Shown here: in pieces, positions 4,462 to 36,774 of the stretch | How the letters are laid out: each line of letters starts with the position of its first letter | How positions within the stretch are numbered: the stretch's first letter is position 1 | Source of the DNA: Desulfamplus magnetovallimortis | GTDB taxonomy: Bacteria > Desulfobacterota > Desulfobacteria > Desulfobacterales > Desulfobacteraceae | DNA: 36,886 bases | NCBI RefSeq assembly: GCF_900170035.1 | Contig: NZ_LT828541.1 | Span: forward strand, 1-36,886 | Direction of reading: 5' to 3' | Position numbers and translations under genes: made by a program | Notes under the pieces: model-generated | What the model saw: the letters and a program-made list of their open reading frames with translations, nothing else | Database searches by the model: none | What the model was told of the DNA's origin: nothing

Positions 4462-5964
4462 ATGACACCAACTGTTAACGATCTTATGAAATCCCCCCTT
4501 AATTTCAGGGGCCTTCTGGATGAGATGCCCCTGGGAATAACCATTGTTGATCTTGATTTCAGGATCGTACTTGTCAATCGTGTGTTTGAAGCACTGACCG
4601 GCTTTTCAGCATCTGATGCACGGGGTATTCCATGCTGCCATATAATAAGGAGTAGGCACTGCTCCGGAAACTGCCCTGCCACCTCTGCAACAGGCAACAT
4701 AAGACACCCTGTCTGTTTTGAAAGTGATATAATAAATCGTGACCGCCAGAAACTTCCTGTAAGAATAACACTTGCCCCTCTTTTAAACTCAAACGGTGAA
4801 CAGAGCGGATACATTGAAACGGTTGAAGATATAAGAGCAATAAAGCAAAGCGATGTCAGAAAAAGCAAGGCATACAGCTTCTCTGACATTGTTGGAAGAT
4901 GTACACAGATGGAAAAAATCTTCCAGACAATACCAATACTTGCCCAGAGCGACACATCCATTCTTATTACAGGAGAAACAGGAACCGGCAAGGATCTTGT
5001 GGCAGAAGCCATTCACCAGACATCCACAAGGGCAGCAGGCCCTTTCATCAAAATCAACTGCGGAGCACTACCGGAAACACTTCTTGAGTCAGAAATCTTC
5101 GGACACCAGAAAGGTGCATTCACAGGAGCTGTTGAAAACAAGCCTGGCAGGTTTCAACTTGCCCATAACGGAACCATCTTTCTGACAGAGATTGGAGACC
5201 TTCCGCTTGCTCTTCAGGTTAAACTGCTCACATTCCTGGATGATAAGGTTATCTACCCCCTTGGCAGCACCAAAGGCTTCAATGCCAATGTAAGGATGAT
5301 TGCAGCAACACACCGTAACCTTGAAACAATGGTAAGAGACGGACAATTTCGCCAGGATCTATTCTTCCGCCTCAACGTGGCACGAATCCACCTCCCTCCT
5401 TTAAGAGAACGGGAAGGCGATATAAGATTGCTGCTTGACCATTTTCTCAACACTTTTTCAAAACAGCTTAACAGAAGGAAAAGCCACTTTTCAAAGGATG
5501 CCTTGAATATCCTTATCCACTATGGGTACACAGGAAACATAAGGGAACTCAGAAACATTGTTGAATACGCTGTAAACATGGCAGGAGATCACCTGATTGA
5601 ACCTGAAAATCTGCCTGCATATCTTTTTGACTCTCCAATGAAGCTTCCTGTAAGAGGAGAGGATTACCATCAACAGGAGAGAGACAACAAGGAAAACAGG
5701 CAACTATCTGGAACGAATTATACAGAAAGAGAAGACCCCTCTTTGTCATATGACAAAGGGGAAACCATGCATTACTCTTCTGCAACTCAAACCCCTCTTT
5801 TCAACCAGAAATCAAATACAGGAGCTTCGTGGGCAGACAGGGAAAGGGAGATGATTCTTGATGCACTTCTCAAGGCAAAGGGTAGAAAACAGGTTGCATC
5901 GGAGATTCTTGGGTGGGGACGTACAACATTGTGGCGGAAAATGAAACAGTATGAAATAGAATAA
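4462..5964 (+). CDS. Sigma-54 activator: PAS-AAA+-Fis HTH
   Basis: Bacterial enhancer-binding protein of 500 residues that should activate sigma-54 RNA polymerase in response to a signal sensed by its PAS domain. PAS spans about 15-125 and contains a cysteine group C58, C59, C67, C71 in a CC-x7-C-x3-C pattern, so metal, cluster or redox sensing is possible. The AAA+ domain has Walker A GETGTGKD (171-178) and an intact sigma-54 contact loop GAFTGA (218-223). The Walker B segment reads GTIFLTEIGD: the usual Asp before the Glu is Thr242. A Fis-type helix-turn-helix lies at about 465-500 (RKQVASEILGWGRTTLWRKM). There is no receiver domain, so direct sensing is likely. The final A of its stop is the first base of the Uma2 start (TAATG). 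The target is unknown; the sigma-54 promoter at 33221 is one candidate. Confidence 0.93.
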   Translation: MTPTVNDLMKSPLNFRGLLDEMPLGITIVDLDFRIVLVNRVFEALTGFSASDARGIPCCHIIRSRHCSGNCPATSATGNIRHPVCFESDIINRDRQKLPVRITLAPLLNSNGEQSGYIETVEDIRAIKQSDVRKSKAYSFSDIVGRCTQMEKIFQTIPILAQSDTSILITGETGTGKDLVAEAIHQTSTRAAGPFIKINCGALPETLLESEIFGHQKGAFTGAVENKPGRFQLAHNGTIFLTEIGDLPLALQVKLLTFLDDKVIYPLGSTKGFNANVRMIAATHRNLETMVRDGQFRQDLFFRLNVARIHLPPLREREGDIRLLLDHFLNTFSKQLNRRKSHFSKDALNILIHYGYTGNIRELRNIVEYAVNMAGDHLIEPENLPAYLFDSPMKLPVRGEDYHQQERDNKENRQLSGTNYTEREDPSLSYDKGETMHYSSATQTPLFNQKSNTGASWADREREMILDALLKAKGRKQVASEILGWGRTTLWRKMKQYEIE

Positions 5965-6551
5965 TGGATAAAAAAATGAATGTGCAAGTTCAACCTCAAA
6001 GTAAAATGACCCCGGATGAGTACTTTGAATTTGATAATAAATCAGATATAAGGCATGAATTTTTCGATGGTGAACTCTTTGCCATGACAGGAGCTACAAA
6101 GAATCATAATCTCATCAACACAAGTCTTACTGTAAATTTGGTTAATGGCATCACCAATTCTACATGCAGAGTTTTTTCCAATGACATGAGGGTGAAAATT
6201 GAAAACGGCTATGTTTACCCTGATCTTGCAGTGGCATGTAGTGATCTTGAATTTGAATCCAACGACCTTGACACCTTAACTAATCCAATTGTTATAGTAG
6301 AGATTCTTTCAAACTCTACCGAGGCTTTTGACAGAGGGGATAAGTTTTCTTATTACCGGATGATTCCTACACTTAAAGAGTATATTCTTGTATCTCAAAA
6401 CAAATGCAGAGTTGAACAGTTCATCAGAAAAGAAAAAAAAATGTGGAGTATGCTTTATTATGAAGATATGGCGCAGATTATGAAAATCGAGTCTGTTAAC
6501 TGTGAATTATTGCTATCTGATATTTATAAGTGGGTTGAATTCAATAAGTAA
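5964..6551 (+). CDS. Uma2-family (DUF820) restriction-endonuclease-fold protein
   Basis: A 195-residue protein of the Uma2/DUF820 group in the PD-(D/E)XK nuclease superfamily. Recognisable family segments are MTPDEYFEF, RHEFFDGELFAMTGA (the N-terminal H-E-x-x-D-G motif), a YPDLAV segment carrying the likely catalytic Asp, VEILSNSTEAFDRGDKF with the downstream Glu, and YRMIPTLKEYILVSQ. The length is normal for the family. It starts on the last base of the preceding stop codon, so translation is probably coupled to the sigma-54 activator. Uma2 genes are abundant in cyanobacteria and some Desulfobacterota; their biological role is not established, and nuclease activity here is a family inference only. 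Confidence 0.85.
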   Translation: MDKKMNVQVQPQSKMTPDEYFEFDNKSDIRHEFFDGELFAMTGATKNHNLINTSLTVNLVNGITNSTCRVFSNDMRVKIENGYVYPDLAVACSDLEFESNDLDTLTNPIVIVEILSNSTEAFDRGDKFSYYRMIPTLKEYILVSQNKCRVEQFIRKEKKMWSMLYYEDMAQIMKIESVNCELLLSDIYKWVEFNK

Positions 6552-6584
6552 TATGATCTTACGGCCACAACGAATAGTGAAAAT

Positions 6585-6843
6585 TCTCAAAAACGACACC
6601 TATGAACTTATGAGCCTTGTTAATACTGTTTGAATCAGGATGCCCAGGATAACCAAGATTTACAGGATAAAAATCTTGAGCATCCTGTAAATCCTGGTTA
6701 TCCTTTATATGAAAGTCTCCGTAACAGCCTGTTTTGAAAATGACTTTCATCCCTTCGATTGTGGCGGTAATCCGCCATGTACGTTATTCAGACAAATGCA
6801 ATAAATGCCAAAAAAGCCAACAAGATGTCGATCTTGAGGAAAA
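6585..6843 (-). repeat. R1 dispersed element, copy 1 (interrupted)
   Basis: A minus-orientation copy of the CCAGGAT-rich element. 6585-6703 corresponds to the right end seen in the copies at 12297 and 22665 (reverse complement of a GACTTTGAG end, then CAGGATAACC-type repeats). The matching left end (reverse complement of TTGAGGATCGACATC-like sequence and ATTGCATTTGTCTGAA) resumes at 6787-6843. The two halves are separated by an R2 element at 6704-6786. This explains most of the gene-free stretch 6552-7054. Confidence 0.6.
6704..6786 (+). repeat. R2 dispersed element nested inside R1
   Basis: Shares TTTATATGAAAGTCTC, CGACTTTCATC-like sequence, CTTCGATTGTGGCGG and GCCATGTACG with the two tandem copies at 26354-26514. 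It contains a small hairpin GGCGG-TAAT-CCGCC. It sits exactly where the R1 copy is interrupted, so it appears to have inserted there. Confidence 0.6.
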
Positions 6844-6995
6844 TTAGAGACAACCCTTTGTGATTTCCGCCATACAGGGCAAACACTCAGGTCTCTCACT
6901 ACAGTTTTTTGCCCACTGAGATACCACTCAGTCACCATTTAGAATCATAATGAAACTTTATGCTACATATATTGAAAAACTATGACACAAAATGA

Positions 6996-7024
6996 TTGAC
7001 ACAAGCAGGTGATGAGGTTATGCT
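6996..7024 (+). promoter_or_regulatory. Sigma-70-type promoter for the NifX-like gene
   Basis: TTGACA (6996-7001), a 17-base spacer and TATGCT (7019-7024). Start of transcription would be near 7031, leaving about 24 bases of leader before the ATG at 7055. The bases between the R1 copy and this promoter (6844-6995) show nothing else recognisable. Confidence 0.6.
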
Positions 7025-7054
7025 TACCACTAATCAGGAGTCAACACTGCTGCC

Positions 7055-7420
7055 ATGATAAAAAGAATATTGATCCCCATATCCGGAGACGATGTTGCCC
7101 CAAGGTTTGATCTTGCAACTGAAGTTCTTGTAATTCTTATCTCAAGAAATAACGAAATTGAAGAAGAACGGACAGTTGTACTTCCAGGAGCCTCTGCTGA
7201 GAAACTGTGCCACCTTATCCTGACTGAAAATATCCATATCCTGATCTGTGGTGCCATTGAAGATGAGTTTTATCAATTTCTTAAATGGAAAAAAGTTACA
7301 ATATTTGATTCAGTTATAAGCAGTTGGCAGAATGCCTTTGACTGCTACCTCAATAACACTCTATCTCCTGGCGCCATACTATACCCACGAATAGTAGAAA
7401 ATACACCCTATCAATTTTGA
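7055..7420 (+). CDS. NifX/NifB-C-like FeMo-cofactor-binding-domain protein
   Basis: A 121-residue cytoplasmic protein of the dinitrogenase iron-molybdenum cofactor family (RNase H-like fold shared by NifX, NafY, the NifB C-terminus and MTH1175-type proteins). Supporting features are the N-terminal strand RILIPISGDDVAPRFDLA, with the family's V-x-P-R-F segment, and the later strand HILICGAIED. Only this one domain is present, and no nitrogenase genes occur nearby. Such stand-alone proteins are common in sulfate reducers, where some act in metal-sulfur cluster handling; the role here is unknown. The ATG has only a distant AGGAG-like site, so initiation may be weak. Confidence 0.65.
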   Translation: MIKRILIPISGDDVAPRFDLATEVLVILISRNNEIEEERTVVLPGASAEKLCHLILTENIHILICGAIEDEFYQFLKWKKVTIFDSVISSWQNAFDCYLNNTLSPGAILYPRIVENTPYQF

Positions 7421-7445
7421 TGTTTTTGCAAAAAACAAAAGCTTT

Positions 7446-7492
7446 AGTAATAGGGTTTAATTAGCTTCCCCCAAACTCCCACTCGCAAGTCT
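7446..7492 (+). repeat. R4 repeat, copy 1
   Basis: A 47-base stretch (AGTAATAGGGTTTAATTA, then CCCAAACTCCC and GCAAGTCT) that recurs inverted at 35205-35250 with 41 of 47 positions identical by hand alignment. It lies in the 385-base spacer upstream of the histidine kinase, directly before the tandem R3 array. Confidence 0.55.
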
Positions 7493-7524
7493 ATGAGAGG
7501 GGGCATGGGGACGATGTGAATAGG

Positions 7525-7754
7525 GAACTTAAAGCCCTTCAGGCGAACTTTTCCATAAACTTTTGCTTTTGCACGAGATAAAATGGAAATTCCTATACTA
7601 TGAACTTAGCGCCCTTCGGGCGGGCTTTTCCATAACCACTTGCTTTTGCAGGAGATAAAATGGAAATTCCTATACTATGAACTTAACGCCCTTCGGGCGG
7701 GCTTTTCCATAACCACTTGCTTTTGCAAGATAAAAATGGAAATTTCTATACTAT
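7525..7754 (+). repeat. R3: three tandem 77-base units upstream of the kinase
   Basis: Units at 7525-7601, 7602-7678 and 7679-7754 abut without spacers. Each runs from GAACTTA through GCCCTTCGGGCGGGC (a short GCCC-TTC-GGGC hairpin in units 2 and 3), TTTTCCATAA, a GATAAAATGGAAAT stretch that can pair with TTTTCCAT, and ends in TATACTAT. Units 2 and 3 are nearly identical and unit 1 is more diverged. A single related copy lies at 36801-36865. Together with R4 this fills the spacer 7421-7805. Confidence 0.8.
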
Positions 7755-7805
7755 CAAGTTATTAAAAATCAATTCCTTAACAAACCACATAGCAAAAGAA
7801 TCCTC

Positions 7806-9554
7806 ATGATTAACTTCAAAAATTCAAAAATTTATACCCTTTTAAGCAGCCTTTATAATCCGGGCAACAGCTCTCCTGAGCACTATGTTGTTTTAAGAAG
7901 GCTCATTATTACCATCATGCTAATTGTAACAACTCTTCCCATGGGAACAATGATTGTTATTAACCATTTCCAGTACAGAAACCACCTTAGAAATGAGATA
8001 ACAACCCCCATTCTCACCCTGGCAAACAAGACAAAACACTCCTTTGAAATACTTCTTGAGGCAAGGCTTTCAACTGTCCGGTTTATTGCCACAGCCTACA
8101 CATACGAGGAGCTTAACGACAGCCAGAACATCAAGCGTATTCTCATGTTTCTCAAAAAAGAGTTTGGAGGCTTTGTGGATCTCGGCCTTATTGACTCCAA
8201 TGGAATACTTAACAGTTACGCTGGCCCCTACCCGCTTCTTGGTAAAAACTACTCAGAACAGACATCTTTTCAGGAGACCCTGATCAAAGGTAAATATATA
8301 AGCAATGTATTTTTGGGGCACAGAAAATTTCCACACATTGTAGTTGCTGTTCAACACCTGACAGATGAAGGAAAAACCTGGATTCTAAGAGCCACAATTG
8401 ACACAGATAAGTTTGACAGCCTTATCCAGAGCATGGGGCTTGACCCCAAAAGTGACGCATTTTTGATTGACACCCAGGGAGTGTTCCAGACAAATTCAAA
8501 ATTTTATGGAAAAACCCTGGAACAGTGCCCCTTTGACATACCATCCCAGAAATTTGAGTCACACATATACGAAACAGTTGACCCTGAAGGACAGGAGGTT
8601 GTCATTGCAAGTGTGGGTTTTAATGCAGCCAACTACACCCTTGTCATTGTAAAACCCCGCTCTGTGGTTCTGCAATCGTGGTATGCCCTTAAAACAGAGC
8701 TTTTCATTGTATTTCTGATTGGACTTTTCTTTATTGTCATAGCCATTTTCAAAATCACCAACAGCCTTATATTGCGCCTTAAGGAGTCTGATGAAAAAAG
8801 GGAAAATACCCTGGCGGAACTCCAGCATACCCAGAAACTTTCGTCCATTGGACGACTTGCAGCAGGTGTTGCCCATGAGATCAATAATCCTCTTGCCATC
8901 ATCAACGAAAAGGCAGGTCTTATGAACGATATCATGGAGTTTTCAGCAGATTTTTCCCAAAGTGAAAAATTCAGGCTTCTTATAGCCTCGATCCTGAAAT
9001 CAGTTGAAAGATGCAGAAAAATTACCCACAGGCTTTTAGGATTTGCCAAACGGATAGAAGTTCAAAGAGAGTCCATGGACACCAATGCTGTTATAAAGGA
9101 GGTACTTGGATTTCTGGAAAGGGAAGCACTTTACAGAAAAATTGATATCCGTCTTAACCTCATGGAACCTCTCAACATTATTGTTTCAGACAGAGGACAG
9201 ATCCAGCAGGTTTTTCTCAATCTTCTCACCAATGCCTTTGATGCTGTAAAAAATGGTGGTATAATTAATATCAAAACAGAAAACATGGATGAAGGTGGAA
9301 TCAAAATTCAGGTCAATGACAACGGTTGCGGTATTCCGGAAGATATTATAAAACATGTCTTTGACCCGTTTTTTTCAACAAAAAAAGAGAAAGGCACAGG
9401 GCTTGGCCTTTCCATTTCCTACGGTATAATAGACCGGCTTGGAGGCAGCATAAGTGTTTCAAGCCATGTCAACCAGGGTACTGAATTTACCATAATCCTT
9501 CCAAAAATCTCAGAACATTCACCGGAGGAGCATAATGAGCACCCAACCAATTAA
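7806..9554 (+). CDS. Cache-domain sensor histidine kinase
   Basis: A 582-residue membrane sensor kinase. The first transmembrane segment is at about 34-54, a periplasmic Cache-like region at about 60-290 (EFGGFVDLGLIDSNGIL and GKNYSEQTSFQETL are typical) and the second transmembrane segment at about 300-320. The dimerisation domain carries the phospho-accepting H357 in GVAHEINNPLAI. The ATPase domain has the N box (QVFLNLLTNAFDAV), G1 (NDNGCGIP) and G2 (GTGLGLSI), so it should be active. The gene overlaps the following receiver gene by 20 bases, marking the pair as cognate. The R3 array lies immediately upstream. No strong ribosome binding site is visible before the ATG. The ligand is unknown; small organic acids are usual for Cache sensors. 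Confidence 0.92.
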   Translation: MINFKNSKIYTLLSSLYNPGNSSPEHYVVLRRLIITIMLIVTTLPMGTMIVINHFQYRNHLRNEITTPILTLANKTKHSFEILLEARLSTVRFIATAYTYEELNDSQNIKRILMFLKKEFGGFVDLGLIDSNGILNSYAGPYPLLGKNYSEQTSFQETLIKGKYISNVFLGHRKFPHIVVAVQHLTDEGKTWILRATIDTDKFDSLIQSMGLDPKSDAFLIDTQGVFQTNSKFYGKTLEQCPFDIPSQKFESHIYETVDPEGQEVVIASVGFNAANYTLVIVKPRSVVLQSWYALKTELFIVFLIGLFFIVIAIFKITNSLILRLKESDEKRENTLAELQHTQKLSSIGRLAAGVAHEINNPLAIINEKAGLMNDIMEFSADFSQSEKFRLLIASILKSVERCRKITHRLLGFAKRIEVQRESMDTNAVIKEVLGFLEREALYRKIDIRLNLMEPLNIIVSDRGQIQQVFLNLLTNAFDAVKNGGIINIKTENMDEGGIKIQVNDNGCGIPEDIIKHVFDPFFSTKKEKGTGLGLSISYGIIDRLGGSISVSSHVNQGTEFTIILPKISEHSPEEHNEHPTN

Positions 9555-9906
9555 AGTTGTATTAATTGACGATGAAGAGGAGTTTTCTTCAACACTTGCA
9601 GAACGTCTGACACTTAGAGGATATGAGACCCAGACCGCTGCCAGCGGAGAAGCAGGGCTTGATCTTGTCTCAAATCAACCCTTTGACATTGCCATACTTG
9701 ATCTTTTGATGCCAGGGATGAGCGGCCTTGATACCCTGCGTCAGATAAAGAGCCTCACTCCTGAACTTCCTGTGGTTCTTCTCACAGGACACGGTTCCAC
9801 AAGGGAAGGGATGGAAGGGATGCGCCTTGGCGCCTTTGACTACCTAATGAAGCCGCTTGATATAAATGAGCTGACAAAAAAAATACTCAGTGCTGTTAAA
9901 AACTAA
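9535..9906 (+). CDS. Single-domain response regulator
   Basis: A 123-residue stand-alone receiver. The acidic pair is in LIDDEEEF, the phosphorylation site is D56 (ILDLLMPGMSG), the switch Thr is in LLTGHGS and the conserved Lys is in YLMKPLD. No output domain is attached, so it probably passes phosphate on or acts by binding a partner. It overlaps the upstream kinase gene by 20 bases and is followed after 30 bases by a protein with a phospho-accepting-histidine domain. Its DDE-x-x-F-x-x-T-L-A-E-R-L segment is strikingly like those of the two receivers at 34188 and 34693. Confidence 0.92.
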   Translation: MSTQPIKVVLIDDEEEFSSTLAERLTLRGYETQTAASGEAGLDLVSNQPFDIAILDLLMPGMSGLDTLRQIKSLTPELPVVLLTGHGSTREGMEGMRLGAFDYLMKPLDINELTKKILSAVKN

Positions 9907-9936
9907 ACAGACATACATAAGGAGTAGATAACGGCT

Positions 9937-10596
9937 ATGAACAGCCAAGAGACATTAAAACCAAAATTTTTTGGAAAAATCACAGCTTCTGTATCCCATG
10001 AAATGCAAAACGTTCTGGCCATTATCAAGGAAAGCGCAGGTCTGATGGAAGACCTTCTCATGATGGCAGAGCGCCAAGGAGGGGATATCACGCCAGAACG
10101 ACTATTCTCATGTCTTGCCACAATCAAGAAGCAGGTAACAAGAGGAACAGAAATTACCTCATCCCTTAACAGCTTTGCACATACTGCCGACCATGAGACA
10201 GAGACTACAGATATTATTGAAATTACAACCCGTCTGCTTATTCTCACCGACCGACTTGCAAGAAATGCCGGCATGGAGATGGCCATTGCACCCTGCCATG
10301 AAGCACTGAAACTCAAAACTGACCCTCTCCAGATACAGGCATGCCTGCATCTGGCAATGGAATGCCTTTTTACATGCCTGAATCCAGGCACCATAGTAAC
10401 CTTTAAATTCAATGGCAGAGAGGGGCTTTTGTCAGAAATTGAAATAACAGCCTCAAATAAAGAGAACCCTGTTGATGATATAAGGGATAGACTCTCTTCA
10501 TCTTCAATGTTTACAAATCTAACAGATGCCCTGGAAAAAATTAATACAACTGCATCACCATTAACATCAGGCTTATTGCTTACCTTTAAGAAATGA
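9937..10596 (+). CDS. Histidine-kinase-like protein with DHp domain but no recognisable ATP site
   Basis: A 219-residue soluble protein. Residues about 12-75 match the dimerisation/phosphotransfer domain of histidine kinases, with the candidate phospho-acceptor H21 in ASVSHEMQNVLAIIKESAGL. The remaining residues have the rough length of an ATPase domain, but the N, G1 and G2 boxes are not visible. It therefore resembles a phosphotransferase of the Spo0B/ChpT kind more than a kinase. It follows a kinase and a single receiver, where a histidine phosphotransfer step would fit. AAGGAG lies 13 bases before the ATG, rather far. The relay role is inference. Confidence 0.7.
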   Translation: MNSQETLKPKFFGKITASVSHEMQNVLAIIKESAGLMEDLLMMAERQGGDITPERLFSCLATIKKQVTRGTEITSSLNSFAHTADHETETTDIIEITTRLLILTDRLARNAGMEMAIAPCHEALKLKTDPLQIQACLHLAMECLFTCLNPGTIVTFKFNGREGLLSEIEITASNKENPVDDIRDRLSSSSMFTNLTDALEKINTTASPLTSGLLLTFKK

Positions 10597-17484: not shown

Positions 17485-17712
17485 GATTATATCCTTCCAT
17501 CAATAAGGGAAAAAAGTTGTCGATTCTGACTCTGTAACCTTTCTGTAACTCACCTTATGTTATGAAAAATCCTGCCATAAATAACAAGATAATATACTGC
17601 CTCAAAACAAGAGGGCAATATACTGCTTAAAAAAAGTCCAATGCCCCCATTTAAATAACTTTTTGTGGCACATTTTCCCTCACCCCAAAGACCATCAGAA
17701 AGGAGATTTCAG

Positions 17713-20700
17713 ATGAATTTGAACCGACGAGAGTTTATTCAGGTATCAGGAGCTACGGCTGCCGGCCTTGCAGTCAGCACCCTTGGTTTTGACCTGAAAC
17801 CGGTCAAAAGCCATGCCCAGATGCTAAAAACAAAGTACGCGAAAGAGACAACAACCATATGCTGCTACTGCGCTGTGGGATGCGGTGCAATTGTCCACAC
17901 AAGCAAACGTGGCGACGGACGGGTAATTAACATTGAAGGTGATCCCGATCATGTCATAAACCGCGGCGCACTCTGCTCTAAAGGTGCATCAATAAAACAG
18001 CTCACAGAAAACGAAAACCGTCTGACCCGACCCATGTACAGAGCGCCCTACTCCACAAAATGGGAAGAGGTCTCCTGGGACTGGGCACTGGAAAAAATTG
18101 CCGAGAGAGTCAAAAAGACAAGGGATGATGGCTTTGAAAAGACCAATTCCAAAGGTCAGGTTGTAAACCGTACCACAAGCATAGCCTCTGTTGGTTCTGC
18201 TGCAATGGATAATGAAGAGTGCTGGATATATCAGGCACTTTTGAGATCCCTTGGACTTGTATATATAGAACATCAGGCCCGTATCTGACACAGCGCAACT
18301 GTAGCGGCTCTGGCAGAGTCGTTTGGACGCGGTGCAATGACAAACCACTGGATTGACCTTAAAAACAGTGACTGCATTCTCATCATGGGCAGCAATGCCG
18401 CTGAAAACCATCCCATTTCTTTCAAATATGTAACCCAGGCCATGCAAAATGGTGCAAAGCTTATAAGCGTTGACCCAAGATTCACAAGAACATCGGCCAG
18501 GGCTGACTTCTACACAGCCCTTAGATCAGGAACAGACATTGCCTTTCTTGGCGGCATGATCAACTACATCCTTAAAAACAACCTCTATAATAAGGAATAT
18601 ACAGCAGCCTATACAAATGCTCCTTTTATTGTGGGAAAATCCTATGGATTTAAAGATGGTCTCTTTTCCGGATATACCAAAGGAAAACCAGAGGCAGGCC
18701 CATCCCTTGGAGGTTACGACAAATCCCAATGGGCATTTGAGATGGATGAAAACAAGGTTCCTATGATGGACAGAAGCCTTGAAAATGAAAGATGTGTTTT
18801 TCAGCTTCTGAAAAAGCACTACTCAAGATACACTCCGGATATGGTATCAAAAATAACAGGAACATCCGAGGCGGATCTTATAAATGTTTATAAAACCTTT
18901 GCAGAGACAGGCGCAAAGGGCAAGGCAGGAACCATCATGTATGCCATGGGCTGGACCCAGCACACTGTGGGAACCCAGATCATCCGGACAATGGCCATAG
19001 TCCAGCTTCTTCTTGGCAACATGGGCATTGCCGGCGGGGGTGTTAATGCTCTTAGGGGGGAATCCAATGTTCAGGGTTCCACAGACCACTGTCTTTTGTG
19101 GCACATCTGGCCGGGGTACCTCAAAACTCCAAGTGCTTCTAAAGATTCTCTCTCCGTATATAATGCCAGTGCAACACCAAAAAGCTATGATTCTCTCTCT
19201 GCAAACTGGTGGCAGAACTATCCTAAATATTCGGTAAGTCTTCTTAAATCCTTCTTTGGGGAACAGGCAACCCAGGCCAACGATTTTGGCTACAACTGGC
19301 TTCCCAAGGTAGATGACGGAAAGGCATATTCGTGGTTTGACCTTTTTGATAAAATGTTTGACGAAAAAATAAAGGGCTTTTTTGCCTGGGGACAGAACCC
19401 TGCATGCTCCGGCTCCAATGCAGGAAAAATCAGAAAAGCCCTTGAAAAACTGGAATGGATGGTCAACGTTAATCTATTTGACAACGAGACAGGTTCTTTC
19501 TGGCAGGGACCTGGCGTAGATCCCACCAAGGTAAAGACTGAAGTTTTTATGCTGCCGGCATCTGTTTCCGTGGAAAAAGAGGGAAGCATCACAAACTCCG
19601 GCAGATGGATGCAGTGGCGATATCAAGGCCCAAAACCCATGGGCGACAGCCGGCCTGACGGCGATATCATTCTGGAGCTTGGCCACAAGATAAAGGAGCT
19701 TTACCACAAGGACGGTGTACTTGCAGAGCCAATTTTAAACCTCAAATGGGATTATGACACAAACGGAGCATATGACCCCCACAAGGTGGCAAAAGAGATC
19801 AATGGCTATTTTCTCAAAGATATCACCATTAAGGATAAACTCTACAAAAAAGGCACCCTTGTTCCAAGTTTTGCATTTTTACAGGCAGATGGTTCCACAT
19901 CTTCAGGCAACTGGCTCTACTGTAACAGCTACACAGAAAAAGGCAACATGTCTGCCCGCAGAAGCGACAAGGATGCTGTCAACAACATCGGCCTCTATCC
20001 TGAATTTGCATGGTGCTGGCCTGTAAACCGCCGTATCATATACAACAGAGCATCAGTGGATCCCAAGGGGCAGCCCTGGGACAAGGATCAGTGGGTTATA
20101 AAGTTTGAAGGGGAACAAAAAGATGGCAAATGGGTCTCCAACAAGTGGACAGGAGATGTACCTGACGGCGGATGGTATCCACTTGAAAATCCGGATGGTA
20201 GCAAGCGAGAAGATTCAAAGTATCCATTTATCATGAGAAAACACGGCCATGGCCAGATCTTCGGGCCAGGGAGAGCAGATGGTCCCTTTCCTGAGCACTA
20301 TGAACCCCTTGAGTGTCCGGTTGAAAAGAACTTTCTCAATCCCCAGAGGGTCAATCCAACGGCTGTTGTATATTCCAGCAGCGAGGATTCCCATGCCACA
20401 TGCGATCCAAGATTTCCTTTTGTGGGTACAACCTACAGGGTAAGCGAACACTGGCAGACAGGGCTTATGACCCGTCCCCAGCCATGGCTCATGGAGCTTC
20501 AGCCCCAGATGTTTGTTGAAATGAGTGAAGAGCTTGCAAAGCTTAAAGGCATAAAGAACGGAGAAAGGGTCAAAGTGACAAGTGCAAGGGCATCTGTTGA
20601 ATGTACAGCAGTTGTAACCAAGCGCTTCAAACCCTTTAACATTGGCGGCAACCTTGTGCATCAGGTGGGAGTTCCCTGGCATTTTGGATGGAGATGGCCA

Positions 20701-20808
20701 TCAACAGGAGCTGAAGAGAGTGCAAATCTTTTAACTCCGCCGGCAGGTGATCCAAACACCCGTATTCCGGAAACCAAGGCATTCATGGTCAATGTAATCA
20801 AACTTTAA
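17713..20808 (+). CDS. fdhA: Formate dehydrogenase alpha subunit, selenocysteine-containing
   Basis: Catalytic Mo/W-bis-MGD subunit of 1031 residues oxidising formate to CO2. Residues 1-36 are a Tat signal (NRREFIQVSG), so the enzyme is periplasmic. C-x2-C-x3-C and a later C (TTICCYCAVGCG, ALCSKG) hold a [4Fe-4S] cluster. The in-frame TGA at 18286-18288 encodes selenocysteine 192 in the context ARI-U-HSATVAALAESFGRG, the conserved active site with the following His. The C-terminal third has the molybdopterin dinucleotide-binding region. AAAGGAG precedes the ATG; upstream in-frame ATG 17665 lacks such a site and would spoil the signal. It is followed by fdhB after 13 bases. Length and partners fit the soluble FdhAB type of sulfate reducers. 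Whether W or Mo is used cannot be told. Confidence 0.95.
18286..18326 (+). promoter_or_regulatory. UGA Sec codon and SECIS hairpin
   Basis: Starting 17 bases after the TGA is a hairpin GGCTCT-GGC-AGAGTC (18306-18320) with six pairs including one G-U, and partly pairing flanks CAAC/GTTTG outside it. Position and size fit the bacterial SECIS element bound by SelB, and the GGC loop resembles known ones. Sec incorporation requires selA, selB, selC and selD elsewhere in the genome. Confidence 0.8.
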
Positions 20809-33220: not shown

Positions 33221-33236
33221 TGGCACACCTTTTGCT
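33221..33236 (+). promoter_or_regulatory. Sigma-54 (-24/-12) promoter
   Basis: TGGCACACCTTTTGCT has the invariant GG and GC separated by exactly 10 bases and matches TGGCAC-N5-TTGCW in full. It points toward the receiver-fusion gene at 33338; transcription would start near 33247, leaving about 90 bases of leader. Confidence 0.75.
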
Positions 33237-33337
33237 GTAGTTATTATCAAAACAATAACAGAAGCAATCGAAACAATGACAAAAACAGCAAAATATTGAA
33301 CAGAACAGAATATAAACGAAAAACCAAGGAGGATACC

Positions 33338-34570
33338 ATGGCTATTATATCAATAACAGGAGCAAAATTCACCCATTCCGATGAGACAGTTGCAAAACTT
33401 TCGGAAAAACTCGGATACAAAATCATAACTGACCAGGAGATCATGGAGGAGACTGCCCAAAATCAGGACATTCAGATTGCAACCATCCATAAGGTGGTTG
33501 ACTCAAAGCAGATACCCTTCAATGACTTTACACATGAAAAAGAGAAAACCATTGCAGCCCTGAGAAAAACCCTTGCCCTTCATATCAGTCAGGGCAATAC
33601 AATTTTCAACGGCATTCTTGGACACCTTATTCCATCATGGACAACACATGCTCTCAGGGTGCTCATTGTAACTGACAGAGAGACGCGAATCCAGAACGGC
33701 ATTAAACTTCTTGGAGTTCCTGAAAAAGATGCTGCCCACGAAGTGAACGAAGCAGACAAACATACAATGCTCTGGGTAAACAGCCTTACAGACAAAAAAG
33801 CCTGGGATAAGAGCCTATATGACATAGTTATTCCATCTGACAAACTTGATGTTACAGAATCTGTTGAGCTTATTTCCAAACACCATGAAACAATGGCTGC
33901 CATGAGTGAGGATCTTGTGAAAAAGGAAGCCTCTGACTTTGCACTTGCAGCCGATGTCTCCCTTGCCCTTGCAGAGACTGGTTCCGGTCTCATAGTTACG
34001 GCTGACAATGGTGATATTGTTGTGACCATTGACAAGAACGTACTCTTTCTCTCCAAACTTAAACAGAAAATCACCACCATTGCAAAACAGATTCCAGGGG
34101 TTAAGTCTGTTGATACCAAAATCGGCAAAAACTACTACAAGGCAGGCAGAAGCCACAACTTTGACTTTGAAACACCCCTGCATGTCCTGCTTGTGGATGA
34201 TGAAAAGGAGTTTGTCCAGACACTTTCAGAGCGCCTTAAGATGCGCCAGATAAGCAGCAACGTAGTATTCAGCGGCCAGGAAGCCCTTGATTCTGCCCAC
34301 AGAGATGAGACAGAAGTGATGGTACTTGACCTCAAGATGCCTGGTATTGACGGATTTGAAGTACTCCGGAAAATCAAGCAGACCAAGCCACACATAGAGG
34401 TGATAATTTTGACAGGACATGGTTCCGAAGCTGACAAGGCAACATGTATGGAACTTGGAGCATTTGCATATCTCCAGAAACCAGCAGACATTGACCAGCT
34501 TGCCGAGACCATGAAAAAGGCATACGAAAAAATTAATCAACGAAAACAAAATGAAGAAGATGCCCAATAA
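33338..34570 (+). CDS. Fusion: cytidylate-kinase-like, BON-like and receiver domains
   Basis: A 410-residue cytoplasmic protein. Residues 1-190 resemble the cytidylate-kinase-like family (SITGAKFTHSDETVAKLSEKLGYKIITDQEIM, later LRVLIVTDRETRI), but the expected glycine-rich P-loop is replaced by GAKFTHSD, so kinase activity is doubtful. Residues about 195-275 look like a BON domain (GLIVTADNGDIVVTIDKNV, QIPGVKSVDTKIG), a ligand- or phospholipid-binding fold. Residues about 285-400 are a full receiver: acidic pair in LVDDEKEF, phosphorylation at D331 (VLDLKMPGIDG), Thr in LTGHGS and Lys in LQKPAD. The start chosen has AAGGAGG; an upstream ATG at 33296 does not. First gene after a sigma-54 promoter, followed by another receiver and an anion transporter. 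Function inferred as signal integration. Confidence 0.75.
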   Translation: MAIISITGAKFTHSDETVAKLSEKLGYKIITDQEIMEETAQNQDIQIATIHKVVDSKQIPFNDFTHEKEKTIAALRKTLALHISQGNTIFNGILGHLIPSWTTHALRVLIVTDRETRIQNGIKLLGVPEKDAAHEVNEADKHTMLWVNSLTDKKAWDKSLYDIVIPSDKLDVTESVELISKHHETMAAMSEDLVKKEASDFALAADVSLALAETGSGLIVTADNGDIVVTIDKNVLFLSKLKQKITTIAKQIPGVKSVDTKIGKNYYKAGRSHNFDFETPLHVLLVDDEKEFVQTLSERLKMRQISSNVVFSGQEALDSAHRDETEVMVLDLKMPGIDGFEVLRKIKQTKPHIEVIILTGHGSEADKATCMELGAFAYLQKPADIDQLAETMKKAYEKINQRKQNEEDAQ

Positions 34571-34582
34571 ATAAAAAAAGGT

Positions 34583-34678
34583 AGGGTAGCAAACCTGTTG
34601 AAGGGCTCTTTCCTCTCTTCTGCATCTGCCAAGAGAAGATGCCGGCACAAGGTCAACAGGTTTGTAACACACTACCCT
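34583..34678 (+). repeat. Long imperfect palindrome between two receiver genes
   Basis: The left arm AGGGTAG-CAAACCTGTTGA (34583-34601) pairs with TCAACAGGTTTG followed by CTACCCT (34653-34678), with a four-base bulge in the right arm. A smaller GCATC/GATGC pair lies in the loop. On mRNA it would make a large hairpin inside the operon, close to the next ribosome site. Confidence 0.6.
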
Positions 34679-34692
34679 AAAAAGGAGAGACC

Positions 34693-35121
34693 ATGAAAGT
34701 TAAAGTGCTTTTAGCTGACGATGAAGTTGATTTTGCAAAAACCCTGGCAGAAAGACTTGAAATGAGAAATCTGTCAGTAACACCGGTATTTTCCGGAAAG
34801 GCTGCTCTTGAGATCATTGAGGAGATTGATTTTGATGTCATTGTACTTGATGTTCTCATGCCTGAAACAAACGGAATTGATCTTCTGAGGGAGATAAAGG
34901 AAAAAACCCCGTTGACCCAGGTTATTATGCTTACAGGGCAGGCAACTGTAAAAAATGCCATTGAAGGCATGAAACTTGGAGCCTTTGATTTTCTTCTGAA
35001 ACCCGCTGACATTGATATGCTGGAAGAGAAGATAAATGATGCATATGGAATCAAACTCAGACATGAAGAGCGCATCAGAAAGGCACAAATTGACTCAATT
35101 ATAAAGGAACGAGGCTGGTGA
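34693..35121 (+). CDS. Single-domain response regulator
   Basis: A 142-residue stand-alone receiver: acidic pair in LADDEVDF, phosphorylation site D53 (VLDVLMPETNG), Thr in MLTGQAT and Lys in LLKPADID. A charged helical tail of about 20 residues (HEERIRKAQIDSIIKERG) follows, possibly for partner binding. AAAGGAG precedes the ATG. It is closely similar to the receiver of the upstream fusion protein and to the one at 9535 over the D-x-x-F-x-x-T-L-[AS]-E-R-L region. It sits between the fusion gene and the transporter gene, so it probably takes part in regulating that transporter. The kinase is not adjacent. Confidence 0.9.
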   Translation: MKVKVLLADDEVDFAKTLAERLEMRNLSVTPVFSGKAALEIIEEIDFDVIVLDVLMPETNGIDLLREIKEKTPLTQVIMLTGQATVKNAIEGMKLGAFDFLLKPADIDMLEEKINDAYGIKLRHEERIRKAQIDSIIKERGW

Positions 35122-35204
35122 TATCATTGATGATGCACACCATAATGCTTTAGGAATTGATTTTTAACAACTTGTCCATTCAACTCGCCCCAGCCACATT
35201 TTAC

Positions 35205-35250
35205 AGACTTGCAAGGGGGAGTTTGGGTAAGTTAATTAAACCCAATTACT
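35205..35250 (-). repeat. R4 repeat, copy 2 (inverted)
   Basis: Reverse complement of the R4 copy at 7446-7492. It lies in the 180-base spacer between the receiver and transporter genes, 52 bases from the transporter start. Confidence 0.55.
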
Positions 35251-35301
35251 TAGTGCTGGCAAAGCACGTCAAAAATATTTTTTTAAATCAGGAGAAATAC
35301 A

Positions 35302-36774
35302 TTGACTACACAAACTATGGCCTCAACCGGCCCAAAAATAGACTGGAAACGGCTAATTTTTCTGACACTGGGACTTGCCCTCTTTTGTATAATCAACTTC
35401 AGCCCTGCATGGCCAGATGCTGTTGATCCCACAGGAAAACAGTTTGTCCTGACTCCGGAAGCAAAGGGAGCGCTTGCCGTATTTATGCTTGCAGGTATCT
35501 GGTGGGTATTTGAAGTTGTGCCGATAGGCGTAACAAGTCTTACCATTGGAGTAATGCAGGTACTTTTCATGGTTCGCCCTGCGAACAAGGCATTCAAGGA
35601 TTTCATGGATCCTTCGGTACTCTTTATATTTGCATCCCTTGTAATCGGCATGGTCTTTACCAAAACCGGACTTACAAAACGGCTTGCCTACAAAATGCTC
35701 TCGGTTGTTGGCGAGAAAACAAGCATGATCTACCTTGGATGCTTTGTTGTAACAGCAGCCTTGACACACATCATGGCACATACGGCAGTTGCAGCAACCA
35801 TGTATCCGCTTTTGATAACAATCTACAGCATGTATGCCGATGACAACAACCCCACAAAATTTGGAAAGGGGCTTTTCATAGGAATGGCTTATGTGGCAGG
35901 CGCAGGCTCCATTGTAACTCTTCTTGGAGCTGCACGCGGCGCTGTTGCTCTTGGATTTTACAAGGATATTGTTGGACATGAGATATCCTTTTTCCATCTG
36001 TCGTACTACATGTTCCCCATTGGCTGGATAATGGTATTTATACTCTGGGGCTTTTTCATGATATTTTTCAAGCCAGAAAAGAAAACAATACCGGGGTTAA
36101 AGGAAAAAGCTGTACGACTTAACTCAGAGATGGGCGGACTTACCCGCAATGAGATTCTGGCAGCCATCATTATCTTTACATGTATTGCAGTGATGTCTAT
36201 GAGATCATTTATTCCTGCCCTACAACCTATTGATAAAACGGCAATAATTCTCATATCAACCATTCTGTTCTTTATCCTCGGCATCCTGGATCTAAAAGAT
36301 CTTGAGGCAATTCCCTGGAACATAATCCTGCTTTTTGGTGGTGCCATGAGCATTGGATTCTGTCTGTGGGAAACTGGCGCTGCCCAGTGGCTTGCCATCA
36401 ACTGGCTGACCATGTTCCAAAACTCACACTGGTTTGTATTTGTAATGAGTATCGCATTCTTTGTCATGATGATGACAAACTTTATCATGAACGTTGCAGC
36501 CATTGCCATATCTCTTCCTGTGGCTCTCGTTATCGCCCCTTACCTTGGGGTATCGCCGGAAGTAATTGTATTTGCTTCGCTTGTAACAGCGGGTATGCCA
36601 TTCCTGCTTCTTGTCGGAGCTGCTCCTAATGCCATAGCATATGACTCAAAACAGTTCACAACAGGTGAATTCTTTAATTATGGTATTCCGGCAAGTATCA
36701 TACTTATGATCATTGTTGGAGTTGCAGTGGCTGTAATATGGCCTCTAATGGGTATGCCGATTCTTACCAATTAA
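35302..36774 (+). CDS. DASS/SLC13-family anion transporter
   Basis: A 490-residue inner-membrane Na+-coupled symporter of the divalent anion family (di/tricarboxylates or sulfate). About eleven to twelve hydrophobic segments are visible. Family landmarks include WWVFEVVPIGVTSL in the first third, a FASLVIGMVFTKTGLTKRLA segment, AHIMAHTAVAATMYPLL (hairpin 1 side), and MMTNFIMNVAAIAISLPVAL near the end, where the usual S-N-T motif is replaced by T-N-F-I-M-N. The start is TTG with AGGAG seven bases ahead; an ATG lies five codons on. It is last in the sigma-54-controlled group with two receivers. In a sulfate reducer sulfate or dicarboxylates are the likely cargo, but the sequence does not choose. 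Confidence 0.87.
   Translation: MTTQTMASTGPKIDWKRLIFLTLGLALFCIINFSPAWPDAVDPTGKQFVLTPEAKGALAVFMLAGIWWVFEVVPIGVTSLTIGVMQVLFMVRPANKAFKDFMDPSVLFIFASLVIGMVFTKTGLTKRLAYKMLSVVGEKTSMIYLGCFVVTAALTHIMAHTAVAATMYPLLITIYSMYADDNNPTKFGKGLFIGMAYVAGAGSIVTLLGAARGAVALGFYKDIVGHEISFFHLSYYMFPIGWIMVFILWGFFMIFFKPEKKTIPGLKEKAVRLNSEMGGLTRNEILAAIIIFTCIAVMSMRSFIPALQPIDKTAIILISTILFFILGILDLKDLEAIPWNIILLFGGAMSIGFCLWETGAAQWLAINWLTMFQNSHWFVFVMSIAFFVMMMTNFIMNVAAIAISLPVALVIAPYLGVSPEVIVFASLVTAGMPFLLLVGAAPNAIAYDSKQFTTGEFFNYGIPASIILMIIVGVAVAVIWPLMGMPILTN

What the first reader, a model, noticed from the sequence alone, without database searches (positions are those of the whole stretch)
33221..36774. P-loop-less cytidylate-kinase-like / BON / receiver fusion heading a sigma-54 anion-transport operon
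The first gene joins a cytidylate-kinase-like domain that has lost its glycine-rich P-loop, a BON-like domain and an intact receiver (D331). A second receiver and a DASS transporter follow, all behind a full-match -24/-12 promoter. A nucleotide-kinase fold without the P-loop may have become a nucleotide or lipid sensor that, with receiver phosphorylation, controls the transporter. I know of no described pathway with this architecture.
Basis: partly seen in the sequence, partly recalled or inferred. Interest (0 to 1): 0.7.

Follow-up and report, generated by a model that had tools for sequence, protein, structure and literature searches.

The report
Phosphorelay cassette beside sulfate transporters
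A dead nucleotide-kinase-like protein fused to a phosphorylation switch sits next to sulfate-type transporters in sulfate-reducing bacteria, together with a likely chain of signalling proteins, which suggests that these cells control anion uptake through a signalling relay.

Summary
In detail: 33338-34570 encodes a P-loop-less cytidylate-kinase-like domain, a BON-like domain (weak by sequence) and an intact receiver, ahead of REC2 and a DASS transporter and behind a full -24/-12 site. The window also carries, at 4462-10596, the other half of the same cassette: sigma-54 activator, NifX-like protein, sensor kinase, lone receiver, and a kinase-shaped protein that keeps its histidine but lacks the N and G2 ATP-binding boxes. 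The halves adjoin in Desulfocicer vacuolatum; here 22.6 kb separates them. In 20 loci from a phylum sample, SulP is the neighbour in 18 (two contig ends), and kinase, receiver and phosphotransferase-like gene follow in that order in 16. I read it as a Spo0-like phosphorelay ending on a catalytically dead kinase-like effector that acts on sulfate-type transporters. Phosphotransfer, effector target, ligand and substrate are inferred. DASS and SulP clusters with two-component genes are in print (PMC11887813), with a promoter-binding-regulator model; my searches found no description of the fusion or of a relay. New variant of a known kind.

The parts
33221..33236 (+). sigma-54 (-24/-12) promoter element TGGCAC-N5-TTGCT
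   Evidence: conserved upstream of the fusion in DASS-type loci
33338..34570 (+). CK-BON-REC fusion, 410 aa: cytidylate-kinase-like domain without P-loop (residues 1-190), BON-like domain (197-262), linker (268-279), receiver (282-395, D331)
34693..35121 (+). REC2, stand-alone receiver of 142 aa, no other Pfam domain
35302..36774 (+). DASS / SLC13-type anion transporter, 490 aa, TTG start
4462..5964 (+). PAS - sigma-54 activator - HTH_8, first half of the split cassette
7055..7420 (+). NifX-like small protein (Nitro_FeMo-Co 23.6 bits, below its cut-off of 26.3)
7806..9554 (+). sensor histidine kinase: dCache-like (43.1 bits, cut-off 45), HisKA, HATPase_c
9535..9906 (+). REC1, stand-alone receiver of 123 aa
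9937..10596 (+). HPt-like protein of 219 aa: histidine-kinase fold, conserved H21, N and G2 boxes absent (Spo0B / ChpT-like)

Best explanation
The fusion is the effector of a Spo0-like phosphorelay tied to sulfate-type anion transporters. The membrane sensor kinase (7806-9554) reads a small molecule and phosphorylates REC1; REC1 passes the phosphoryl group to the histidine of the ATP-less kinase-shaped protein (9937-10596); that protein phosphorylates the receiver of CK-BON-REC (D331) and REC2. Neither of these carries a DNA-binding domain, so the output is most likely a change in the CK-BON part that opens or restrains the neighbouring transporter (SulP in most of the phylum sample, DASS here). 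The PAS / sigma-54 activator (4462-5964) sets how much fusion, REC2 and DASS are made from the promoter at 33221. Shown here: gene content and order, kept and lost residues, promoter, predicted folds. Inferred: every phosphotransfer step, binding to the transporter, sulfate as substrate, the signal.
For: Order fusion - kinase - receiver - HPt-like in 16 of 20 loci of a phylum sample, SulP adjacent in 18 of 20 with two contig ends. Anion transporter within three genes on the same strand in 20 of 20 family loci with the fusion; 3 of 365 control genes have one. HPt-like: H-[ED]-x-x-N in 38 of 38, N-box 0, G2 0, G1-like 2 of 38, histidine-kinase fold. Seven receiver-less, DASS-adjacent CK-BON genes nest in the fused DASS group, all with the sigma-54 site; around five of them kinase, receivers and HPt-like gene are missing while CK-BON and DASS stay. 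HPt-like gene within six ORFs of 34 of 41 fused but 1 of 24 unfused genes, edge loci set aside. Neither the fusion nor REC2 hits a DNA-binding family.
Against: No phosphotransfer or binding is shown. Some fused loci lack parts of the relay nearby: L104 (no HPt-like gene found), L113 and L117 (no kinase, no HPt-like gene) in the family set; L168, L170, L178 and L181 depart from the order in the phylum set. L054-L057 keep receiver, kinase, HPt-like gene, receiver and a DASS-type gene without CK-BON. pTM 0.65 leaves the placing of the domains open. The related loci are not independent observations.
Confidence: 0.55

Rival explanations
1. The CK-BON part is first of all a metabolite sensor: it still binds a nucleotide (for example AMP, ADP or APS) without catalysis and gates the transporter by energy or sulfur state, and the receiver only modulates it.
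For: Fold and pocket residues G92, R117 and D140 are invariant in 57 of 57 fused and 16 of 16 P-loop-bearing copies; CK-BON stays with DASS after loss of the receiver; some P-loop-bearing relatives also stand beside SLC13-type transporters. PMC11887813 proposes an APS link for the CBS proteins of such clusters (section 14).
Against: P-loop and lid arginine are lost (R143 in 7 of 57 fused against 16 of 16); no ligand is known; the CBS proteins could do the same job.
Confidence: 0.2
2. The relay controls transcription: phosphorylated fusion or REC2 acts on the sigma-54 activator (or on TetR in SulP-type loci) as a partner-switch or adaptor, and the transporter is reached only through its promoter.
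For: Sigma-54 site and activator travel with the DASS type; a TetR gene precedes SulP in L108; PMC11887813 proposes promoter-binding regulators.
Against: The activator has a PAS, not a receiver; SulP-type loci have the fusion but no such site (0 of 4; 0 of 16, best 13.5); SulP is encoded directly beside the fusion.
Confidence: 0.15
3. The receivers act as phosphate sinks or competing acceptors, the HPt-like protein as a phosphatase or scaffold, and CK-BON merely anchors the receiver near the membrane.
For: REC2 shares the HPt-like protein with the fusion in most loci of the phylum set; L054-L057 have a lone receiver in place of the fusion; phospholipid binding by the BON protein DolP is reported (title of PMC7806268; passages seen).
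Against: CK-BON is kept beside DASS after loss of the receiver, which an anchor for a receiver does not explain; the BON match is weak.
Confidence: 0.1

Closest known systems
DASS and SulP sulfate-uptake gene clusters of Desulfobacteraceae (PMC11887813; section 14 read whole, other passages by search)
   Same: Same kind of neighbourhood: DASS or SulP transporter, cache-domain sensor kinase, response regulators, CBS protein, TetR beside SulP
   Different: Main text names no cytidylate-kinase-like protein and no phosphorelay; regulators are called WalR-type and drawn as binding promoters, whereas the fusion and receivers here have no DNA-binding domain. Identity of their clusters with this cassette was not tested gene by gene
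Spo0 phosphorelay (KinA - Spo0F - Spo0B - Spo0A; recalled)
   Same: Kinase, single-domain receiver, ATP-less histidine-kinase-fold phosphotransferase, terminal receiver protein
   Different: Terminal protein carries a dead kinase-like and a BON-like domain in place of a DNA-binding domain; two candidate terminal receivers; tied to a transporter
CckA - ChpT - CtrA/CpdR relay of Caulobacter (recalled; ChpT abstract seen in the listing)
   Same: Phosphotransferase shaped like a histidine kinase that serves two receivers
   Different: Separate REC1, other output; only 1 of 38 HPt-like proteins hits the ChpT-type domain HPTransfase
Cytidylate_kin2 family (PF13189; 3fdi, 3hdt)
   Same: Sequence family and fold
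   Different: P-loop and lid arginine lost, fused to BON-like and receiver domains
PII-like SbtB with SbtA (recalled)
   Same: Soluble regulator encoded beside the transporter that it gates
   Different: Unrelated fold, no phosphorelay input

Membership tests
Cytidylate_kin2 (PF13189) | profile match above the cut-off | tested here: met
   74 against 28 bits; 43 of 43 members match at E<=0.01
Cytidylate_kin2 (PF13189) | kinase fold | tested here: met
   3hdt TM 0.83, 3fdi TM 0.73 by target length; profile hits E 2e-10 and 3e-11
Cytidylate_kin2 (PF13189) | P-loop needed for catalysis | tested here: not met
   0 of 57 fused proteins, 0 of 21
BON (PF04972) | profile match above the cut-off | tested here: inconclusive
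   13.5 against 27 bits; isolated domains 14 of 42 at E<=1, best 1.2e-5; no clear PDB relative
Response regulator receiver | acidic pair, phosphoryl-acceptor Asp, Thr, Lys | tested here: met
   43, 43, 42, 42, 43 of 43 rows; 21 of 21
Spo0-like phosphorelay | kinase, lone receiver and phosphotransferase encoded together with the terminal receiver protein | tested here: met
   16 of 20 loci of the phylum set in that order; split in the window
Spo0-like phosphorelay | phosphotransferase with conserved His and without ATP-binding motifs | tested here: met
   38 of 38 His, 0 N-box, 0 G2, 2 G1-like; HATPase_c hit in 1 of 38
Spo0-like phosphorelay | His-Asp-His-Asp phosphotransfer | not testable with these tools
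   needs purified proteins
Spo0-like phosphorelay | terminal regulator is a transcription factor | tested here: not met
   fusion and REC2 show no DNA-binding family
DASS anion transporter | family match above the cut-off | tested here: met
   TIGR00785 204.6 against 198.6 bits; VcINDY E 2e-27
DASS sulfate transporter | sulfate as substrate | not testable with these tools
   74% identity to a DASS of a chromosome matched to HRM2 by length; the review's passages on HRM2_40290 disagree with each other
sigma-54 promoter | GG and GC elements at the right spacing, conserved position | tested here: met
   21 of 22 aligned fused genes near DASS score at least 14 of 15.5; background 71 of 4300

The most novel reading that the evidence does not exclude
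The fusion is a phosphorelay-licensed, nucleotide-reading valve: a kinase fold that gave up catalysis to sense an adenylate such as APS or AMP and that binds and gates SulP or DASS transporters directly, joining outside sulfate (sensor kinase) and inside energy or sulfur state in one protein. That would be a response-regulator output and a form of transporter control for which I found no precedent, widespread in the phylum.
Probability: 0.25. Interest if true: 0.82.

Novelty: new variant of a known kind. Interest (0 to 1): 0.62.

Why it matters
Sulfate uptake strongly affects the rate of sulfate reduction, and how its transporters are switched is open. The cassette offers a complete candidate chain from sensor to transporter with a testable order of phosphotransfer, puts in question (for loci of this type) a published model in which the regulators bind promoters, and shows a dead nucleotide kinase as a receiver-controlled output, which my searches did not find described.

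Tried and rejected
Rejected: (1) that the fusion is an oddity of this genome: full-length relatives at E<=1e-90 are in 37 of 296 phylum genomes, this one included, and CK-BON matches at E<=1e-10 in 69 of 86 family genomes, this one included. (2) That linkage to transporters is chance: 20 of 20 regions with the fusion against 1 of 20 control regions hold an anion transporter. (3) That the -24/-12 site is chance: 21 of 22 near DASS; absent next to SulP only (0 of 4) and in 0 of 16 phylum loci scored. (4) That the hairpin at 34571-34692 is a conserved element: it folds well (z -3.25), and strong folds occur in L011, L012, L031 and L047, but most other spacers are short and weakly folded. (5) That the C4 cluster (L066) is the same cassette: its DASS is 28% identical.

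Led nowhere: paper searches on cytidylate kinase-like with response regulator, with and without BON domain (0 papers); BON domain with cytidylate kinase (one paper, whose main text does not hold the second term); cytidylate kinase with sulfate permease and response regulator (0); SulP with phosphorelay (255 papers, only 8 seen as a listing, so it proves no absence). Searches gave the papers used. The library holds open-licence papers only; supplements were not read. The BON-like profile found no clear PDB relative.

Rows dropped: of 54 loci, 40 gave the 42 homologue rows of A1 (L025 and L027 two each). Left out: L028 and L045 (cut), L029 and L038 (no full-length ORF after my overlap filter), L054-L058, L060, L061 (receiver or partial matches), L062-L064 (distant receivers). 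A4 omits L017 of the 43 rows. A2 omits one cluster member (L061:1-675, an ordinary kinase by sequence) and adds L059. The tree uses 87 distinct of 96 sequences. The 20 phylum regions are the first 26 of 38 listed matches outside G000, less six close to a contig end. Profiles were built from the named loci; that for SLC13-TrkA_C from one sequence. My overlap filter hid genes in some loci, so the phylum counts come from an unfiltered rerun.
Full report
WHAT IS THERE. The gene runs from ATG 33338 to 34570 and encodes 410 residues. Pfam gives Cytidylate_kin2 at 3-168 (E 2.2e-20) and Response_reg at 283-391 (E 6.6e-27); BON stays below its cut-off. REC2 (34693-35121) and a DASS transporter (35302-36774) follow. 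TGGCAC-N5-TTGCT at 33221-33236 is the only full -24/-12 match in the window, with a mean of 0.07 in shuffles. The AlphaFold2 model from 43 sequences has mean pLDDT 87.6 and pTM 0.65: three folded parts, with a disordered linker at 268-279 and uncertain relative placing. Foldseek ranks receivers first and puts the first part on 3hdt (TM 0.83 by target length, rmsd 2.8) and 3fdi (0.73); a sequence profile finds the same two entries. The middle part has the order helix, strand, strand, helix, strand, which fits a BON fold as I recall it; isolated domains hit BON in 14 of 42 cases at E<=1, best 1.2e-5. I call it BON-like, not proven BON.

P-LOOP. Among 87 CK-BON modules, G14 with a basic residue 15 occurs in 16 of 30 without receiver and in 0 of 57 with receiver; in 21 fused proteins (20 from the phylum set plus the window) again 0. 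R143, taken to be a lid arginine, is present in 16 of 16 P-loop-bearing copies and 7 of 57 fused ones; G92, R117 and D140 are invariant in both groups. The fusion keeps the fold and some pocket residues but not the phosphate-handling parts.

THE OTHER HALF. Around homologues the same genes recur: sigma-54 activator, NifX-like protein, sensor kinase, receiver, a kinase-like protein of about 220 residues, the fusion, a receiver, DASS, a CBS protein. Five of these are in the window at 4462-10596; they are 68, 77, 74, 76 and 42% identical to the genes that precede the fusion in Desulfocicer vacuolatum (L011). A Uma2 gene (5964-6551) lies inside the first half, and 22.6 kb (10597-33220) with other genes, none of which matched the cassette genes of the named loci over most of its length apart from a kinase, separates the halves.

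THE PHOSPHOTRANSFERASE-LIKE PROTEIN. In 38 aligned copies the H-box histidine is invariant. H-[ED]-x-x-N is present in 38 of 38, the N-box in 0, the G2 box in 0 and a G1-like string in 2; 39 sensor kinases of the same loci keep N-box in 37, G1 in 33 and G2 in 38. Pfam finds HisKA in 21 of 38, HATPase_c in 1 and HPTransfase in 1. The model (pLDDT 96.1) matches histidine-kinase DHp-CA structures at TM 0.4-0.5 over the chain. This is the anatomy of Spo0B and ChpT (recalled; ChpT abstract seen in the listing). In 19 copies (18 from the phylum set plus the window) the histidine motif is in 19 and the two ATP motifs in 0. There, REC1 keeps its catalytic residues in 18 of 18 rows and REC2 in all but one of 17 at most positions.

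LINKAGE. An anion transporter (DASS, SulP or SLC13-TrkA_C) lies within three genes on the same strand in 20 of 20 family regions with the fusion and 10 of 20 with unfused CK-BON; 1 of 20 control regions holds one, and 3 of 365 control genes have one so near. In the named set it is 27 of 42 loci by that rule and 37 of 42 within five ORFs on either strand; the misses are L017, L020, L023, L040 and L045, most of them cut near the gene, but L023 has several kilobases after it. In the phylum sample 37 of 296 genomes, in 29 of 199 genera, have the full fusion. In 20 loci taken from it SulP is the adjacent gene in 18 and the contig ends in the other two; kinase - receiver - HPt-like follows in 16, the exceptions being L168, L170, L178 and L181. 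Two SulP proteins checked carry STAS.

PROMOTER AND HISTORY. A sigma-54 score of at least 14 of 15.5 is found upstream of 21 of 22 aligned fused genes near DASS (17 of 17 where the activator gene was also found; the window's activator was entered by hand), 0 of 4 near SulP only, 1 of 2 near SLC13-TrkA_C and 4 of 15 without a transporter by that rule; background 71 of 4300. None of 16 phylum loci scored has it, best 13.5. In the tree the fused label needs three changes and the P-loop label two. Seven receiver-less, DASS-adjacent genes nest within a well supported group of 22 that is otherwise fused; the branch joining these seven is less sure (81/96). All seven have a 15.5 site. Around five (L119, L121, L123, L129, L130) no kinase, receiver or HPt-like gene was found; L132 keeps a receiver and an HPt-like gene; in L052 an antisense ORF may hide a receiver. 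HPt-like genes lie within six ORFs of 34 of 41 fused and 1 of 24 unfused genes away from edges. My reading: the receiver is the input from the relay and goes with it, and CK-BON is what stays with the transporter. Against it: L054-L057 keep receiver, kinase and HPt-like gene with a DASS-type gene and lack CK-BON; L104, L113 and L117 have the fusion without an HPt-like gene nearby.

WHICH ANION. The DASS is 74% identical to that of L118, on a contig of 5,589,073 bp, the published length of the Desulfobacterium autotrophicum HRM2 chromosome. There SulP, fusion, kinase, receiver and HPt-like gene face PEP-synthase-like, DASS and CBS genes, which would fit HRM2_40360 to HRM2_40290. That assignment rests on length and order, not on locus tags. 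Passages of the review PMC5840216 report both transporters as highly expressed at 15 mM sulfate and seen in membrane fractions, but another passage of the same review says that HRM2_40290 was preferred below 100 uM; it cites Tarpgaard 2017 for both, which I did not see. Both SNT motifs of VcINDY (recalled) are altered in the window's DASS (alignment). Sulfate is therefore an inference.

WHAT IS KNOWN. PMC11887813 (section 14 read whole, other passages by search) describes DASS and SulP clusters with cache sensor kinases, WalR-type regulators, CBS proteins and TetR, and proposes promoter-binding regulators. Its main text holds neither 'cytidylate' nor 'phosphorelay'; its supplements were not available to me. 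The passages search of PMC5840216 found no 'cytidylate', 'response regulator', 'histidine kinase' or 'two-component'. Searches for the combination found nothing. So the transporter clusters are known; the relay and its dead-kinase effector seem undescribed within the library searched.

VERDICT. The anatomy is well supported; the mechanism is inferred. New variant of a known kind; interest 0.62.

Noticed in passing
window 17665-20808: Formate-dehydrogenase-like molybdopterin gene interrupted by one in-frame TGA at 18286-18288, probably selenocysteine (U208); Fer4 and weak FdhE-like genes follow.
   Followed up: partly
window 10597-33220: 22.6 kb of other genes between the two halves of the cassette: protein kinase, phosphoesterase, solute-binding proteins, formate dehydrogenase, a PAS kinase, proline dehydrogenase, MFS and NlpC/P60 genes. 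How they came there was not traced.
   Followed up: partly
window 34571-34692: Strong hairpin between the fusion and REC2 (-39.5 kcal/mol, z -3.25); strong folds also in L011, L012, L031 and L047, not in most relatives.
   Followed up: partly
L067:5422-8966; L125, L127, L128: SLC13-TrkA_C transporter followed by two tandem CK-BON proteins and a receiver; where aligned, one copy keeps the P-loop and the other has lost it, as if an active-like and a dead copy pair up.
   Followed up: partly
L066 (G000:C4:150000-169999): Paralogous regulatory cluster: CBS, two USP-like, kinase, receivers, a DASS only 28% identical, then kinase, receiver, a SulP-like transporter and NtrC-type genes.
   Followed up: partly
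L108:14467-16891: After a SulP-type cassette: HTH-PTS_EIIA_2 protein and a CLC chloride channel with CBS; TetR upstream of SulP.
   Followed up: no
L025:8564-11041; L027:8619-11075: Two CK-BON-REC genes in tandem, from different branches of the tree.
   Followed up: no
L054-L058: Stand-alone receiver 58-61% identical to that of the fusion, without CK-BON; in L054-L057 it heads kinase, HPt-like gene, receiver and a DASS-type gene.
   Followed up: partly
L030-L032, L043, L046, L051: Mrp-type antiporter subunits (Desulfoluna) or a NhaD-like gene lie beside the cassette, so sodium handling may travel with it (names for these clusters are mine, from sequence look and recall).
   Followed up: no
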